Shown here piece after piece: positions 911 through 27,719 of a stretch of DNA of 53,406 bases. How positions within the stretch are numbered: position 1 is the stretch's first letter; the number at the start of each line of letters is the position of its first letter. Location of the stretch: the NCBI GenBank assembly GCA_030834165.1, contig JAURFU010000007.1, positions 1 to 53,406 on the forward strand, given 5' to 3'. Origin of the DNA: Verrucomicrobiota bacterium. GTDB lineage: Bacteria > Verrucomicrobiota > Verrucomicrobiia > Opitutales > UBA953. The position numbers were made by a program, and so were the translations under genes. Under the pieces are notes generated by a model, which worked only from the letters and a program-made list of their open reading frames with translations, was not told where the DNA came from and did no database searches.

Positions 911-3013
911 GTGTCCCGCAGAACACATCGGTTAGCCCTAGCCGCCCTAGCAATCGCCTGGACTGCCTTGGCCCCTGCCTGCGAACTCTGCCGACAGGCT
1001 TACGTCGCCGCGCTTGAAGCCGCACCGAAGGCTTCCGCGCTCCACACACAGGCGCCCGTCGTGACCTACCGGCTCGAAGTTTCCGAAAAAACGCTCAGCC
1101 CAGCCGGTCAGCCGACCAAAGTGCTCGCGCTCAACGGAGGCACCCCGGGCCCGGTGCTCCGCTTCCGCGAGGGCGACGTCGCCCGGGTCACGGTAGTCAA
1201 CCGCCTGACCGACGAGACGACCTCGATCCACTGGCATGGACTGCTGGTGCCCAACCTGGAGGACGGTGTGCCCGAAGTGACGACCCCTCTCATCTTGCCC
1301 GGGCAGTCCCGCACCTTTGAATTCTTGATCCGGCAGCATGGCACCTATTGGTATCACAGCCACACCGGACACCAGAAGCAACGCGGCGTCTACGGCGCCA
1401 TCGTGATCGAACCTAAGCGCCCGACGTTGGCCGCCGACCATGACGAGGTCGTCGTGCTCTCCGACTGGACGGACGAGACGCCGACGGAAGTCCAGCGGAC
1501 GCTCCTCCGCGGCAGCGATTGGTATTCGTTCCGGAAAGGCACCGCGCAATCCCTCCTCGGCGCCTATCAGGCCGGCAAGCTGGATGAATACCTGGGACAA
1601 CAGCAAAGACTGGTGCCGCCCATGGACCTCTCCGACGTCGCGTACGACGCCTTCCTGATGAACGGTCAACGCCGGCTGCAGCTGAAGGGAAAGCCAGGCC
1701 AGACGACGCGCCTTCGGCTCATCAACGCCAGCGCCGCCACCTATTTTTACCTCGATGCGGCGACGGGGCCGCTGAAGATCGTCTCCGCCGACGGTCAGGA
1801 TGTCGTCCCGTTCGCCCAGAAGCGCCTCCTCATCGGACCCGCCGAAACGTATGACATCCTGGTGACGCTTCCCGCGACCGACACATGGGAACTGCGTGCC
1901 ACCGCCCAGGACGGCAGCGGGTCGGTGTCCGCCTGGCTCGGCGAAGGCGTGGCGCATGCCGCCGACGCGCCTCCTCGGCCCGAGCGTTACGGGATGGATG
2001 CCTACCTGTCATCGATCCTCGACGAGCTGGACCCGGAGCCTGGCGCCCCGCCGTCAGCCCGTCCGCTTTCGCCTTATTCCAAGCTACGAGCGGCGACCCC
2101 GCACGCCGTGGCCAAGTCGCATCGCGAACTGACCCTCAAGCTGACGGGGGACATGATCCGCTATGAATGGACTTTCGATGGCCTCGGCCCGCATGAGGCC
2201 GATGCCATAAAGGTCAAGGCCGGCGAGACCCTCCGCGTGCGACTGGTGAACAATACCATGATGCACCACCCGATCCATTTCCACGGGCACTTCTTCCGCC
2301 TGGTCGACGAGGCCGACCAGGATCCGGCGACCTCGCCCCTGAAACATACCGTCGACGTCCCTCCGATGAGCGTGCGGACGATCGAGTTCACCGCCGACGA
2401 AGGCCAAGGGGACTGGCTCCTGCACTGCCACCTGCTCTACCACCACCTCACGGGCATGGTCCGCACCATCCGCGTGACGGCCGCCGACGGCGCCGAACCG
2501 CCCCACCCGGCGGCCACGCACACGATGCCTTCCACCTACGCCTGGGGGCAGGCGACGCTGACCAGCGCCCATTTCGCAGGCTTCGCCACGCTCCAGTCAG
2601 GGGCCGACAACCTATACCTGCGCTGGGATGAGGGCGTGCGCTCCGGCGACTGGCACGAGACCGAGGCCTTCTACCAACGCTACGTGGATACCCGGCTTGC
2701 CCTGATCGCAGGCTATCGTTCGGATACTTCCGCCGGAGGACGGGAATCGGTCTTCGCCGGCGCAGCGTTGCGCCTTCCCTATTTCGTCGACCTGACGCTT
2801 ACCCATCAGGCGGGGGGCGAAACCAGGGCCGAACTGCTCAAGTCGGTCCAGCTGAGCGACCGATTCTCCCTGGACCTGGCCTTGCGCCACGGGCGCAAGA
2901 CGGGTACGTTCACCTCAGCGGATTTCAATTTCCTGCTGAACAAGACCTTTTCCCTCACCGCCGGATACAGTTCCGATTTCGGAGCGGGAGCCGGCATCAT
3001 CGCCCGATTCTGA
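911..3013 (+). CDS. Multicopper oxidase (CopA-like) fused to a CopB-like outer-membrane barrel
   Basis: About 700 residues from GTG 911, which opens a signal peptide (RRTHR, then a hydrophobic stretch ending ALAPA); an in-frame TTG at 866 is an alternative start. Residues 50-530 form a three-cupredoxin oxidase with all four copper motifs: HWHG (107-110), WYHSHTG (147-153), HHPIHFHGH (452-460) and HCHLLYHHLTGM (505-516, with type 1 Cys and Met). Residues about 545-700 differ in kind: alternating short beta-strands, an LPYFVDLTLTH segment resembling CopB, and a terminal Phe (IIARF), the usual outer-membrane barrel ending. By family, CopA oxidises or sequesters periplasmic Cu(I) and CopB is a separate outer-membrane protein. 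Here both seem to be one chain, anchoring the oxidase to the outer membrane. The barrel assignment is inference from sequence pattern. Confidence 0.88.
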   Translation: MSRRTHRLALAALAIAWTALAPACELCRQAYVAALEAAPKASALHTQAPVVTYRLEVSEKTLSPAGQPTKVLALNGGTPGPVLRFREGDVARVTVVNRLTDETTSIHWHGLLVPNLEDGVPEVTTPLILPGQSRTFEFLIRQHGTYWYHSHTGHQKQRGVYGAIVIEPKRPTLAADHDEVVVLSDWTDETPTEVQRTLLRGSDWYSFRKGTAQSLLGAYQAGKLDEYLGQQQRLVPPMDLSDVAYDAFLMNGQRRLQLKGKPGQTTRLRLINASAATYFYLDAATGPLKIVSADGQDVVPFAQKRLLIGPAETYDILVTLPATDTWELRATAQDGSGSVSAWLGEGVAHAADAPPRPERYGMDAYLSSILDELDPEPGAPPSARPLSPYSKLRAATPHAVAKSHRELTLKLTGDMIRYEWTFDGLGPHEADAIKVKAGETLRVRLVNNTMMHHPIHFHGHFFRLVDEADQDPATSPLKHTVDVPPMSVRTIEFTADEGQGDWLLHCHLLYHHLTGMVRTIRVTAADGAEPPHPAATHTMPSTYAWGQATLTSAHFAGFATLQSGADNLYLRWDEGVRSGDWHETEAFYQRYVDTRLALIAGYRSDTSAGGRESVFAGAALRLPYFVDLTLTHQAGGETRAELLKSVQLSDRFSLDLALRHGRKTGTFTSADFNFLLNKTFSLTAGYSSDFGAGAGIIARF

Positions 3014-3018
3014 ACCCT

Positions 3019-3285
3019 ATGAAAACCCTCCTCCTCGCCATTTGCCTTCTCACCAGCCTGCCGAACTGGGCGGCAGACAATCCGGCTCCTGCCGTCGCCA
3101 AGCCTGCCGCCCCTAAGCCTTATCCCCTGAAGACCTGCATCGTCTCGGACAACGATCTCGATTCGATGGGCGAACAGGCCTCCTTCGTACACCAAGGCCA
3201 GACGATCAAAGTCTGCTGCAAGCCCTGTATCGCGAAGTTCGAGAAGAATCCCTCGAAGTACCTGAAGAAGCTGGAAGGGAAATAA
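3019..3285 (+). CDS. Small exported metal-binding protein, YHS/TRASH-like
   Basis: 88 residues. A signal peptide (MKTLLLAICLLTSLPNWAA) and a Pro/Ala linker precede a single domain starting at KTCIVSDNDLDSMG and containing CCKPC followed by FEKNPSKYLKKL. A lone Cys, then a Cys-rich turn and an F-x-x-(N/D)-P-x-x-Y/W helix is the layout of YHS/TRASH-type metal-binding modules, common in periplasmic copper and heavy-metal proteins. It starts 5 bp after the oxidase stop, so the two are almost certainly co-transcribed. A role as copper chaperone or sensor for the oxidase is inferred; the metal is not shown by sequence. Confidence 0.75.
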   Translation: MKTLLLAICLLTSLPNWAADNPAPAVAKPAAPKPYPLKTCIVSDNDLDSMGEQASFVHQGQTIKVCCKPCIAKFEKNPSKYLKKLEGK

Positions 3286-3291
3286 GCAGTC

Positions 3292-3549
3292 TCAGTAGTG
3301 GTAGCGGGCCTGGAGGACGTAGATGACGCCCTTCTCGACCCGATAGACCAAGCGATGCTCCAGCGTGATCCGCCGCGACCACCAGCCCGAGAGGTCGCCT
3401 TTCAAGGGTTCAGGTTTACCGATCCCCTTGAACGGGGCCTTGGCGATGTCGGCCAGCAGACGCTCGAGGCGGTCATAAGTGCGCGGCTCCGACTGCTGCC
3501 AGTAAGCGCGATCCTCCAAGGCGCCCGTCGACCAGCGGACCTCAGCCAC
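3292..3549 (-). CDS. Toxin of a type II toxin-antitoxin pair, YoeB (RelE) family
   Basis: 85 residues, the usual YoeB length. It has the N-terminal W-x-x-x-A-x-x-D/E-Y-x-x-W pattern, central RRITLEHRLVYRV and the ending ARYHY; the Glu, Arg and C-terminal His/Tyr of this fold form the ribonuclease site in YoeB. By family it cleaves mRNA in the ribosomal A site. It overlaps the 3' end of the antitoxin by 8 bp, which couples translation. It ends 6 bp from the convergent copper-locus gene. Confidence 0.9.
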   Translation of the reverse strand: MAEVRWSTGALEDRAYWQQSEPRTYDRLERLLADIAKAPFKGIGKPEPLKGDLSGWWSRRITLEHRLVYRVEKGVIYVLQARYHY

Positions 3550-3790
3550 GGGAGGCCTTCTTGAACTTGCCGGCCTTGAATTCGGCCAGGCCCTTACGGA
3601 GGCGGTCGGCGTTACGCGGCGAAGACAGGAGATGGAAGGTCTCGGCCATGGCGGCGTATTCGGCGGCGTCGACGAGCACGACGGAGGCCGCGCCGTTGCG
3701 CGTGATGGCGACGGGTTCGCGATCCGCGTTGGCCGCCTCCATGAGGCTGGCGAGCTGGTTACGGGCGTCGGTGTAGGAGACGGTCTTCAT
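3542..3790 (-). CDS. Antitoxin, YefM/Phd family
   Basis: 82 residues from ATG 3790 (MKTVSYTDARNQL). This is the typical Phd/YefM beginning: beta-strand, then a helix with the RxxLxxLM pattern. VAITRNG and AxVVLVDAAEYAAM follow, the conserved dimerisation core. The Lys/Arg-rich C-terminus is the expected toxin-neutralising tail. The open frame runs upstream to 3901, but the family start lies at 3790. It precedes and overlaps the YoeB-like toxin. These antitoxins usually repress their own promoter, fitting the palindrome just upstream. Confidence 0.9.
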   Translation of the reverse strand: MKTVSYTDARNQLASLMEAANADREPVAITRNGAASVVLVDAAEYAAMAETFHLLSSPRNADRLRKGLAEFKAGKFKKASRG

Positions 3791-3810
3791 GCAGGCAGTC
3801 TGCACATTGT

Positions 3811-3822
3811 ACAGAATTCTGT
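3811..3822. promoter_or_regulatory. Putative antitoxin operator palindrome
   Basis: A perfect 12-bp palindrome, ACAGAATTCTGT, 20 bp upstream of the antitoxin start in an AT-richer stretch, next to TACAAT (minus strand, 3806-3811) that could be a -10 box. YefM/Phd antitoxins bind short palindromes overlapping their promoter. Binding here is inferred. Confidence 0.45.
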
Positions 3823-3986
3823 CAAGTGAGCGGGTCTCCGCTGACGATGGCATGACGTAGGTCATACCCCATCCTACCTGCTGAGCATGCCTGAAGGCCA
3901 TCGGGCCAAACCACCATCACTGGACCGATGATTCTCCCCGGCTTGCCTCCCTCATGGTTACGCCTACCTATCAGGCTCTCACTTCC

Positions 3987-21360: not shown

Positions 21361-25792
<4,432 letters not shown>

Positions 25793-25826
25793 TGTGTTGA
25801 AGATGGGTGAGTGATGAGAAGTTTTA

Positions 25827-27143
25827 TCAGGGACGTTCGAAGAGCGTCTTGGCCTCGGTGAACGAGGTGCCAGCGAGGGTTTCGGCCCGGACGAGCGCGA
25901 GCGCGTACGCAAGTTCGGCGTCCAACAGCTCGCGACGCAGGGCGATCAGGCCCCGGCGCGCGTCGAGCACGTCGATAAAGGCAAGGGCGCCCTTGTCGTA
26001 GGCGGACTGCACGGAGACGCAGGCCTCTTCGGCTGCGGGTAGGGCCTCGCGACGCAAGGCCGTCGCCTGCGCATGGGCGGCGCTCAGTTCGGCATGCGCT
26101 GCGACGAGCGCAGCACGCTGTTCAAGTTCGGCGGCGCGCAGGGACTGCTCGGCGGCGCGGAGCATCGCTCGGGCAGCGCGGATGTTGCCGGAGTTATCAT
26201 CGCGGAAGGTCAGAGGAATCGAGGCACCGACGACGAAGGCAGTGGCGGGGCCTTCGTTGAGACGACGGACGCCCGCTCCGAGGGTGACATTGGCCACGCT
26301 CCGGGCGGACTCGAGCTCAAGCGCAGCCCGCTGGCCAGCGACCATCGCGGAGACCAACCCTAAGCGCGGATTGCCCGACACCGCGAGGGCGGACTCGAAA
26401 CGGGCGAGCGCGGGGGGCGTCGCAGGCAGGCGCAGCGCCCCTTTAATCTCGGCGATTTCCGAGGCGCTTCCACCCCAAGACGCCGCGAGGCTCGCAAGGG
26501 CGATCGAAGAGGCGGACTTTGCGCGCGCGAATTCTGCTTGGGCGGAAGCCAGCGCGGCGCGGGCACGGGCGACTTCGGAAGGCGATGCGGTCGCGGCCTG
26601 CAGACGCCGACTCGCCGAGGCGAACGTCTCCTGCGTAAGTTTGAGCTGCTCCCCTGCGAAGGAGAGACGAGTGGTTTCGGCCAAGGCCTTGGCGAAAGCA
26701 TTCGCGGAGGCCGCGAGGATATCGGACCGGCGCAGCGCCAGCGAAGCTTGGGCGACGTCACGCTCGCGTTCGGCGAAGGCGATGCGACGGCCGGACTTGT
26801 CGCCGCGCTCGATGAGCTGGCTCGCCTGAACCGTGAGTTCCATGACGTCAGAACCACGCGCAAGCCTAGTGCCGCCAAAATTCTCGACCGATAGCGATAA
26901 GTTGGGATTGGGGCCCATACCCGCCTGCGCTACCCGGCCATCGGAGGATTCTCGGCTGAAACCAAGGGCGAGTAATTCGGGGTTCAACTCGGCCGTCCGG
27001 GCGAGCACGTCGCCCAAGGTGAGGGACGCCGGAGATCGCGGGGCGACCTCGACGGGTGCTGAAGCAGTCAAGATCAGCGGGTCAGCGGCATAGCCAAGGA
27101 CGGGTAAGGTTAACGTCAGGAAAAGGATGTGGAAAAGGTTCAT
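25827..27143 (-). CDS. czcC: CzcC-type outer-membrane efflux protein
   Basis: 438 residues with a signal peptide (MNLFHILFLTLTLPVLGYA). Two repeats of long Ala/Glu/Arg-rich helices, TLGDVLARTAELNPEL at the first helix and VGASIPLTFRDDNSGNI in the second half, as in CzcC/TolC proteins. It forms the outer-membrane duct for CzcBA. It leads the three-gene efflux operon, 34 bp before czcB, inside the region bounded by tRNA-Ser copies. Confidence 0.9.
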   Translation of the reverse strand: MNLFHILFLTLTLPVLGYAADPLILTASAPVEVAPRSPASLTLGDVLARTAELNPELLALGFSRESSDGRVAQAGMGPNPNLSLSVENFGGTRLARGSDVMELTVQASQLIERGDKSGRRIAFAERERDVAQASLALRRSDILAASANAFAKALAETTRLSFAGEQLKLTQETFASASRRLQAATASPSEVARARAALASAQAEFARAKSASSIALASLAASWGGSASEIAEIKGALRLPATPPALARFESALAVSGNPRLGLVSAMVAGQRAALELESARSVANVTLGAGVRRLNEGPATAFVVGASIPLTFRDDNSGNIRAARAMLRAAEQSLRAAELEQRAALVAAHAELSAAHAQATALRREALPAAEEACVSVQSAYDKGALAFIDVLDARRGLIALRRELLDAELAYALALVRAETLAGTSFTEAKTLFERP

Positions 27144-27269: not shown

Positions 27270-27647
27270 TCAGATCCGCAGACACATCGTCCCCGCACTC
27301 AAGGCAGGCGGACGAGATGGTAGCGATGGATAACTAAAAATGGGGCGGACTGTCACGAGGGCAGGCCTTTCGACGCAAGCAAAGAGCGGAGCCAGCAAGG
27401 GCGCGTCCAACGAGAAAATTACCGAAGGGAGCAAGCCCACCGGCTCATCAGCCAGCGCGACCGGCGAGGAAGGTACCAGGCAATCCGAGCAGTCATCGGG
27501 CTGGGCGCAGGCCTCGCCAGCGTGTTCGCAATCCGCCGTGACCTCGTCGCAGTGGCAATGTTCGACCGCCAGCACGCCGACCGTCGCCCACAGGAGGAAG
27601 GCGAGGCAGGCGAAGAGTCTGGAACGGGCGATTGCCAATGAAATCAT
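27270..27647 (-). CDS. Cys-rich exported protein of the metal-efflux region, function unknown
   Basis: 125 residues from ATG 27647, preceded by AGGTGG at a good distance; GTG 27659 is an alternative. A signal peptide (LFACLAFLLWATVGVLA) is followed by a compact Cys/His cluster: EHCHCDE, TADCEHAGEACAQPDDCSDC. The rest is hydrophobic and Pro-rich. No family is recognised. It lies 126 bp upstream of czcC on the same strand, inside the putative island, so a periplasmic metal-binding or sensing role is a reasonable guess but only that. Confidence 0.6.
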   Translation of the reverse strand: MISLAIARSRLFACLAFLLWATVGVLAVEHCHCDEVTADCEHAGEACAQPDDCSDCLVPSSPVALADEPVGLLPSVIFSLDAPLLAPLFACVERPALVTVRPIFSYPSLPSRPPALSAGTMCLRI

Positions 27648-27719
27648 ATTTCGAGCCACCTGAGCGAAGTCAAGCGAGCAAAGGCATTCCGTCGCGCCAT
27701 CGGGGCATGACGTGCGTTT

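What the first reader, a model, noticed from the sequence alone, without database searches (positions are those of the whole stretch)
911..3013. CopA-like multicopper oxidase and CopB-like outer-membrane barrel fused in one protein
The reading frame has all four copper motifs of a CopA oxidase and then, with no stop, about 155 residues of beta-strand sequence with an LPYFVDLTLTH segment and a terminal Phe, as in CopB and other barrels. In known copper loci copA and copB are separate genes. A fusion would place copper oxidation at the inner face of the outer membrane. The barrel is shorter than typical CopB.
Basis: partly seen in the sequence, partly recalled or inferred. Interest (0 to 1): 0.7.

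Follow-up and report, generated by a model that had tools for sequence, protein, structure and literature searches.

The report
Copper oxidase fused to membrane barrel
One bacterial protein joins a copper-handling enzyme to a small pore-like barrel of the outer membrane, two parts that are usually made by separate neighbouring genes, and the same joined protein occurs in several bacterial phyla.

Summary
Window 911-3013 (+) is one open frame of 700 codons: a multicopper oxidase with all 12 copper ligands, an 18-residue linker, and a 159-residue tail ending in Phe. AlphaFold2 gives the tail 12 beta-strands (block pLDDT 92-97), the number in solved PcoB. Profile comparison links it to stand-alone CopB (96.5%, E 1e-9); reversed, shuffled, autotransporter and TonB-receptor controls reach at most 12.5%. 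It is no assembly join: 74 of 79 loci fetched align to the end of the tail in one frame, in Verrucomicrobiota, Bacteroidota, Bdellovibrionota and Dadabacteria. On a tree the fused oxidases form one group beside stand-alone CopA (support 91/93). A Tat-type pattern is found in 9 of 9 stand-alone CopA and 0 of 79 fused loci, as expected if the chain must stay unfolded to reach the outer membrane. Copper genes lie near many fused genes. Best reading: a single-chain PcoA-PcoB unit that oxidises copper at the periplasmic face of the outer membrane. [quoted passage not shown] That the barrel conducts copper is not shown; one key PcoB pore acid aligns with Ser here.

The parts
911..3013 (+). whole gene: single-chain multicopper oxidase plus CopB-like barrel, 700 aa, GTG start (TTG 866 also possible)
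   Evidence: relatives
911..979 (+). N-terminal signal peptide (residues 1-23), Sec type by inspection; it holds SRRTHR but no hydrophobic residue two places after RR, so it does not fit the Tat pattern used
   Evidence: read; Tat pattern test on relatives; no signal-peptide predictor was run
1058..2479 (+). three-domain multicopper oxidase (residues 50-523)
   Evidence: Pfam; AlphaFold2; Foldseek (the 50 listed of 1491 matches are laccases and other multicopper oxidases)
1229..1240 (+). copper motif 1, HWHG (residues 107-110)
1355..1363 (+). copper motif 2, HSH (residues 149-151)
2267..2284 (+). copper motif 3, HPIHFH (residues 453-458)
2423..2458 (+). copper motif 4, HCHLLYHHLTGM (residues 505-516)
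2480..2533 (+). linker (residues 524-541); 18-24 residues across 75 aligned rows
2534..3010 (+). 12-stranded CopB-like outer-membrane barrel (residues 542-700), terminal Phe
   Evidence: AlphaFold2; hhalign
3019..3285 (+). small secreted-looking TRASH/YHS-like cysteine protein, 5 bases after the oxidase-barrel gene; probably its operon partner (inferred)
   Evidence: Pfam matches below cut-off; a homologue lies in the flanks of the fused gene in 21 of 22 Verrucomicrobiota loci

Best explanation
It is a single-chain version of the PcoA-PcoB (CopA-CopB) pair. The chain crosses the inner membrane unfolded by the Sec route. The oxidase half folds and takes up copper in the periplasm, and the C-terminal 12-strand barrel is inserted into the outer membrane. 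The oxidase is thus tethered 1:1 at the periplasmic mouth of the barrel, where it turns Cu(I) into the less toxic Cu(II) as part of copper defence. Shown here: one continuous gene, intact copper ligands, a predicted 12-strand barrel related to CopB, a wide and apparently single-origin distribution, and copper genes nearby in many relatives. Inferred: Sec export, outer-membrane location, periplasmic placing of the oxidase, Cu(I) as substrate. Least certain: that copper passes through the barrel rather than the barrel being mainly an anchor.
For: Pfam domains and ligands. AlphaFold2: full chain pLDDT 88.8, pTM 0.88, 12 strands in residues 542-699; tail alone pLDDT 93.4, pTM 0.80, again 12 strands. 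hhalign of 45 tails against 9 stand-alone CopB: 96.5%, E 9.6e-10; reversed CopB 3.7%, reversed tail 12.5%, 20 column shuffles at most 1.1%; autotransporter barrel 6.7%, TonB-receptor barrel 0.3%. Best PDB sequence match of the tail profile is PcoB 7pge_B, E 0.033. Solved PcoB has 12 strands with both termini on the periplasmic side (PMC9210255). Large loop-length variation falls in loops 3-4 (4-14) and 5-6 (6-27), outward if the N-terminus is periplasmic. Tat pattern in 9 of 9 stand-alone CopA and 0 of 79 fused loci. One group on the tree, 91/93, 94% of bootstrap trees. In the flanks of 79 loci: Cu-ATPase 38, CopZ-like 18, CusA 10, MerR 8, no stand-alone CopB; examples over NCBIfam cut-offs for a copper ATPase, CueR and CusA. 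In Caulobacter the N-terminal part of PcoB stabilises PcoA, and docking is suggested (PMC12509749).
Against: The window tail alone is below Pfam's CopB cut-off (14.3 against 27 bits) and finds no PcoB in the PDB by phmmer. Only 5 of 45 tails match CopB at E 0.01, and 6 of 45 match the TonB-receptor barrel. The oxidase is below the TIGR01480 cut-off (352 against 479 bits). The confident profile match covers strands 4-10, not 1-3. PcoB pore acid E207 aligns with Ser645, and D97 cannot be placed. The window's Met-rich stretch is lost. No CopC or CopD was found in the genome, which is 81% complete, and its one Cu-ATPase match is below cut-off (348 against 397 bits). The efflux adaptor in the window resembles divalent-metal and CzcB types more than CusB, so that pump may not be for copper. 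No background rate was computed for the neighbour counts. No location, activity or flux was measured.
Confidence: 0.7

Rival explanations
1. Anchor only: the barrel is a worn-down CopB that no longer passes copper and merely holds the oxidase at the outer membrane.
For: Very short loops; PcoB's pore acid E207 aligns with Ser645; much of what is conserved across 75 rows is structural (Gly, Leu-Pro) with few charges (E583, R590, R639).
Against: The predicted interior is rich in charge (16 of 23 charged or His residues in strands assigned inward), and E583 and R639, both assigned inward, are each kept in 72 of 75 rows. A simple lipid anchor would be cheaper than a 12-strand barrel.
Confidence: 0.35
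2. Autotransporter-like display: the barrel carries the oxidase through the outer membrane, so that oxidation happens outside the cell.
For: Sec-like signal, N-terminal passenger and C-terminal 12-strand barrel with terminal Phe is the layout of classical autotransporters (recalled). CopB itself resembles the autotransporter barrel (78%).
Against: The tail matches the autotransporter barrel at only 6.7%, and PF03797 is not among the families hit by 45 tails at E 0.01. The domain is about 160 residues with no pore helix predicted.
Confidence: 0.1
3. Metal oxidase other than copper detoxification: a porin-MCO unit for Fe(II) or another substrate, as proposed for PcoAB in iron oxidisers.
For: PMC5566968 proposes a porin plus periplasmic MCO role for PcoAB as a hypothesis (passages). 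The window and 18 other Verrucomicrobiota rows have only 1-2 Met in the 60-residue stretch where Bacteroidota have 12-20 Met in 77-133 residues.
Against: Copper ATPase, CueR, CopZ-like and CusA genes near relatives; a CusA/CzcA-type pump about 18 kb away in the window, though its metal is not known.
Confidence: 0.15
4. Assembly artefact joining copA and copB.
For: Draft genome of 150 contigs.
Against: The same join in relatives of four phyla: 77 of 79 loci without a stop or frame break in the match, 74 of them aligned to the end of the tail, including named isolates of Chitinophaga, Mucilaginibacter and Hymenobacter.
Confidence: 0.01

Closest known systems
PcoA-PcoB / CopA-CopB pair (E. coli pco, Pseudomonas cop)
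   Same: Three-domain multicopper oxidase and 12-strand CopB barrel, in the same order as the genes, with copper-defence genes near many relatives.
   Different: One chain instead of two genes; no Tat pattern; compact barrel (about 160 residues against 208 Pfam profile positions); no His/Met-rich CopB N-terminal tail of its own in the window protein; no CopC or CopD found.
Fused PcoA and PcoB mentioned for five Legionella species (PMC3548706, one sentence)
   Same: Same kind of fusion of the same two families.
   Different: Found here in Verrucomicrobiota, Bacteroidota, Bdellovibrionota and Dadabacteria. Direct sequence comparison with the Legionella proteins was not made.
PcoB crystal structure 7PGE
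   Same: 12 antiparallel strands; best PDB match of the tail profile.
   Different: Pore pair D97-E207 not recovered in the window protein; no fold superposition could be run.
Cyc2-type cytochrome-porin fusions
   Same: A redox protein fused to an outer-membrane barrel (PMC10654088, passages).
   Different: Cytochrome instead of a copper oxidase; iron oxidation.

Membership tests
CopA/PcoA multicopper oxidase (TIGR01480) | three Cu-oxidase domains | tested here: met
   all three over cut-off
CopA/PcoA multicopper oxidase (TIGR01480) | complete set of copper ligands | tested here: met
   12 of 12, in 75 of 75 rows
CopA/PcoA multicopper oxidase (TIGR01480) | score over NCBIfam cut-off | tested here: not met
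   352.4 bits against 478.95; it is the best-scoring NCBIfam model all the same
CopA/PcoA multicopper oxidase (TIGR01480) | Tat signal | tested here: not met
   pattern in 0 of 79 fused loci (two of them cut at the 5' end) against 9 of 9 stand-alone; window by eye
CopA/PcoA multicopper oxidase (TIGR01480) | Met-rich stretch before the third domain | tested here: not met
   window 1 Met in 60 residues; Bacteroidota relatives 12-20
CopB/PcoB (PF05275) | score over Pfam cut-off | tested here: not met
   14.3 bits against 27
CopB/PcoB (PF05275) | family-level profile similarity | tested here: met
   hhalign 96.5%, E 9.6e-10, controls at or below 12.5%
CopB/PcoB (PF05275) | 12-strand barrel | tested here: met
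   prediction only; PcoB from PMC9210255
CopB/PcoB (PF05275) | copper-binding pore pair D97-E207 | tested here: inconclusive
   E207 aligns with Ser645; D97 lies outside the confident alignment
CopB/PcoB (PF05275) | copper conductance | not testable with these tools
   needs a flux assay
fused PcoA-PcoB of Legionella | MCO and CopB in one chain | tested here: met
fused PcoA-PcoB of Legionella | common descent with the Legionella fusions | not tested
   no Legionella sequence was fetched
autotransporter (PF03797) | autotransporter barrel profile | tested here: not met
   6.7%, E 0.0054; PF03797 not among the families hit by 45 tails

The most novel reading that the evidence does not exclude
An ancient one-chain oxidase-channel: a single fusion, spread across at least four phyla, that swapped Tat export for Sec so that a copper oxidase could be delivered with an outer-membrane barrel. 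It fixes the two partners 1:1 and passes freshly oxidised Cu(II) straight into the pore. It would be direct genetic evidence that ordinary PcoA and PcoB work as a docked pair.
Probability: 0.35. Interest if true: 0.65.

Novelty: new variant of a known kind. Interest (0 to 1): 0.5.

Why it matters
How PcoA and PcoB work together, and whether PcoB lets copper in or out, is unsettled in print (PMC9210255 argues import, PMC12509749 argues efflux and suggests docking). A natural fusion conserved across phyla is strong genetic evidence for a 1:1 unit at the outer membrane, and gives a one-gene system for testing it, also in environmental genera such as Chitinophaga and Mucilaginibacter. The loss of the Tat pattern also bears on the suggestion, raised in PMC12509749, that PcoB might travel with PcoA through Tat: the fused form manages without a recognisable Tat signal.

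Tried and rejected
Assembly frameshift: rejected. Autotransporter barrel: not supported. TonB-receptor barrel: 6 of 45 tails match it in Pfam, but the profile comparison gives 0.3%. An 8-strand barrel, considered from length alone, is not what the models show. Mapping PcoB's named pore residues one by one was only partly possible. Foldseek of the barrel model alone against the PDB could not be run; the direct fold comparison with 7PGE is therefore missing.

Rows dropped and limits: of 79 loci, five were left out of alignment A1 (L015, L019, L023, L024, L031: cut, frame-broken or with a poorly matching or short tail), leaving 74 plus the window. The tail alignment A3 uses 45 of those 75. The Tat count covers all 79 loci, including L015 and L026, which are cut at the 5' end (L015 holds no signal region), and looks at the 130 residues before the first HxHG-like motif. 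The 9 stand-alone CopA are 5 from Verrucomicrobiota (three of them close to each other) and 4 from plasmids; for L146 the pattern hit is not the likely true Tat motif, which lies earlier in the same stretch. The tree used 29 of the 75 A1 rows plus 10 fused proteins from loci. In one search, 14 of 20 autotransporter loci and 14 of 20 TonB-receptor loci were tried, and 13 and 11 kept. In one search the Bdellovibrionota rows look out of register over the last strands, so the counts for the last loops are unsure. Phylum labels were assigned by me from record titles.

Full report
What is there. The frame 911-3013 (+) reads 700 residues from a GTG. Residues 50-523 are a three-domain multicopper oxidase: Cu-oxidase_3 E 2.1e-41, Cu-oxidase_2 3.7e-31, Cu-oxidase 3.7e-23. 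The best NCBIfam model is the CopA subfamily TIGR01480, at 352 bits, below its cut-off of 479. All 12 copper ligands are identical in 75 of 75 aligned rows. Foldseek of the full model gives 1491 matches; the 50 listed are laccases and other multicopper oxidases.

The tail. Single-sequence searches see little: CopB at E 0.032 and 14.3 bits, below the cut-off of 27, and no PcoB in the PDB by phmmer. An alignment of 45 tails compared with 9 stand-alone CopB by hhalign gives 96.5% and E 9.6e-10 over 101 columns, which correspond to strands 4-10. Controls: reversed CopB 3.7%, reversed tail 12.5%, 20 column shuffles at most 1.1%; autotransporter barrels 6.7%, TonB-receptor barrels 0.3%. CopB itself resembles the autotransporter barrel at 78%, so these barrel classes may be distant kin. 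Against: only 5 of 45 tails match CopB in Pfam at E 0.01, and 6 of 45 match the TonB-receptor barrel. The tail profile's best PDB sequence match is PcoB, 7pge_B, E 0.033; the next, E 0.23, is listed as TMB12sol9_3, by its name a designed 12-strand barrel.

Structure. AlphaFold2 on the full chain with 75 sequences gives pLDDT 88.8 and pTM 0.88. Residues 542-699 hold 12 strands, with block confidence of 92-97. The tail alone (45 sequences) again gives 12 strands, pLDDT 93.4. Solved PcoB is a 12-strand barrel with both termini on the periplasmic side (PMC9210255; abstract and parts 1-2 of the results section). Across 75 rows, large length changes occur only in loops 3-4 (4-14) and 5-6 (6-27); the other nine vary by 0-2 residues, with doubt about the last loops, where Bdellovibrionota rows look out of register. 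Both variable loops would face outward if the N-terminus, and so the oxidase, is periplasmic. In/out alternation of hydrophobicity is matched by 1 of 5000 residue shuffles.

Distribution. A scan of genome contigs found 396 stretches encoding relatives; the best 80 were kept, giving 79 loci titled as Verrucomicrobiota (22, mostly Opitutae), Dadabacteria (3), Bdellovibrionota (15), Bacteroidota (38) and one unplaced bacterium. In 77 of 79 the match has no stop or frame break; 74 were aligned to the end of the tail. The whole protein is in one match in 14 of 57 near genomes, the window's own included; 4 more have it in pieces, in G001 and G022 in a broken frame. The tail alone, searched in 288 genomes of the phylum, is found in 16, and 17 of its 18 places lie in frames of 710 aa or more. 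Stand-alone CopB over cut-off is in 5 of 194 genomes, none of them among those 16. The window's own genome has no other Cu-oxidase_3 match at E 0.001 and no CopB match at E 0.01. Among plasmids, 24 of 3999 records with a match cover at least 80% of the protein; the 15 listed are all Bacteroidota, 14 of them annotated 'multicopper oxidase domain-containing protein'.

History. A tree of 54 oxidase domains (39 fused, 9 stand-alone CopA, 6 others) makes the fused ones one side of a branch (91/93, below the tool's star mark of 95/80; 94% of bootstrap trees), next to CopA. One fusion event fits but is not proved, and the sampling was chosen by similarity to the window protein.

Export. A twin-arginine pattern is found before the oxidase in 9 of 9 stand-alone CopA (in one, L146, the hit is not the likely motif) and in 0 of 79 fused loci, two of which are cut at the 5' end. 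The window has SRRTHR, which lacks the hydrophobic residue. PcoA is described as having a Tat signal and likely exported folded (PMC7558416, passage). A folded oxidase is hard to reconcile with bringing an unfolded barrel to the outer-membrane machinery (established knowledge, recalled), so the loss of Tat fits a real outer-membrane fate for the tail. This is inference.

Surroundings. In the flanks of 79 loci: Cu-ATPase 38, CopZ-like 18, CusA 10, MerR 8 (all Bdellovibrionota), outer-membrane efflux protein 1; at least one of these in 45 of 79, and in 39 of the 61 loci with 4.5 kb or more on both sides. The TRASH-like gene is in 21, all Verrucomicrobiota; a stand-alone CopB in none. Examples are over the NCBIfam cut-offs for a copper ATPase, CueR and CusA; the CopZ example is below its cut-off. 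No background rate was computed. In the window, a CusA/CzcA pump lies at 21364-24537, but its adaptor resembles divalent-metal and CzcB types more than CusB. The genome's one Cu-ATPase match is below cut-off; CopC and CopD were not found.

Mechanism. Best reading: Sec export, periplasmic folding and metallation of the oxidase, barrel insertion, and a 1:1 tether at the periplasmic mouth of the barrel, with Cu(I) oxidised to Cu(II). Whether copper then passes the barrel is open. In the profile alignment PcoB's E207 falls on Ser645, and D97 lies outside the confident part. E583 and R639, assigned inward, are each kept in 72 of 75 rows, and R590, in a strand whose faces are hard to tell apart, in 74; this suggests a kept interior. 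In print, PcoB conducts Cu(II) in liposomes and is argued to import (PMC9210255), while Caulobacter PcoB is argued to export and to stabilise PcoA (PMC12509749; abstract, section 5 and passages).

Novelty. Literature searches. Their listings were read; passages or sections were opened in ten papers (PMC3548706, PMC9210255, PMC12509749, PMC5566968, PMC10654088, PMC7558416, PMC6769254, PMC3707914, PMC7015863, PMC11195947). The only report of the fusion seen there is one sentence on five Legionella species (PMC3548706, passages). A beta-proteobacterial survey links MCO with CopB by association (PMC6769254, passages). In two papers listed for 'PcoA, PcoB, fused' the word refers to cloning. No paper on the fusion in the phyla seen here turned up in these searches; most listed papers were not opened, and preprints and most subscription papers are not in the library.

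Verdict. Real, correctly read, ordinary in its parts. The interest lies in the breadth, the apparently single origin and the Tat-to-Sec change. Interest 0.5.

Noticed in passing
3019-3285 (+): Small cysteine protein (TRASH/YHS-like, below Pfam cut-offs) right after the fused gene. A homologue lies in the flanks of the fused gene in 21 of 22 Verrucomicrobiota loci; several relatives carry a second, more distant copy in tandem.
   Followed up: partly
980-991 (+), residues 24-27 of the fused protein: CELC motif right after the signal peptide; several Verrucomicrobiota relatives have the like (CEIC, CEAC), while the alignable part of other phyla begins later. Perhaps a metal site; not tested.
   Followed up: no
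1958-2137 (+), residues 350-409 of the fused protein: The window and 18 other Verrucomicrobiota rows have 1-2 Met in a 60-residue stretch that is Met-rich in Bacteroidota (12-20 Met) and His-rich in Bdellovibrionota (7-20 His).
   Followed up: partly
21361-27143 (-): Heavy-metal RND efflux cluster: CusA/CzcA-type pump over cut-off, adaptor, outer-membrane efflux protein, followed by a cysteine-rich small frame at 27270-27659 with no Pfam match.
   Followed up: partly
3292-3901 (-): YoeB-type toxin and Phd/YefM-type antitoxin pair just downstream.
   Followed up: no
L110:4-2139 (-), from a genome of the window's genus: A second MCO type in the genus has an AhpC/TSA thioredoxin-like domain after its oxidase part: another MCO fusion, on a separate branch of the tree.
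   Followed up: no
CopB (L130-L134, L145-L148) against autotransporter barrels (L158-L177): Stand-alone CopB and autotransporter barrels align at 78% probability, E 1.8e-5; a possible distant relation of two 12-strand barrel families.
   Followed up: no
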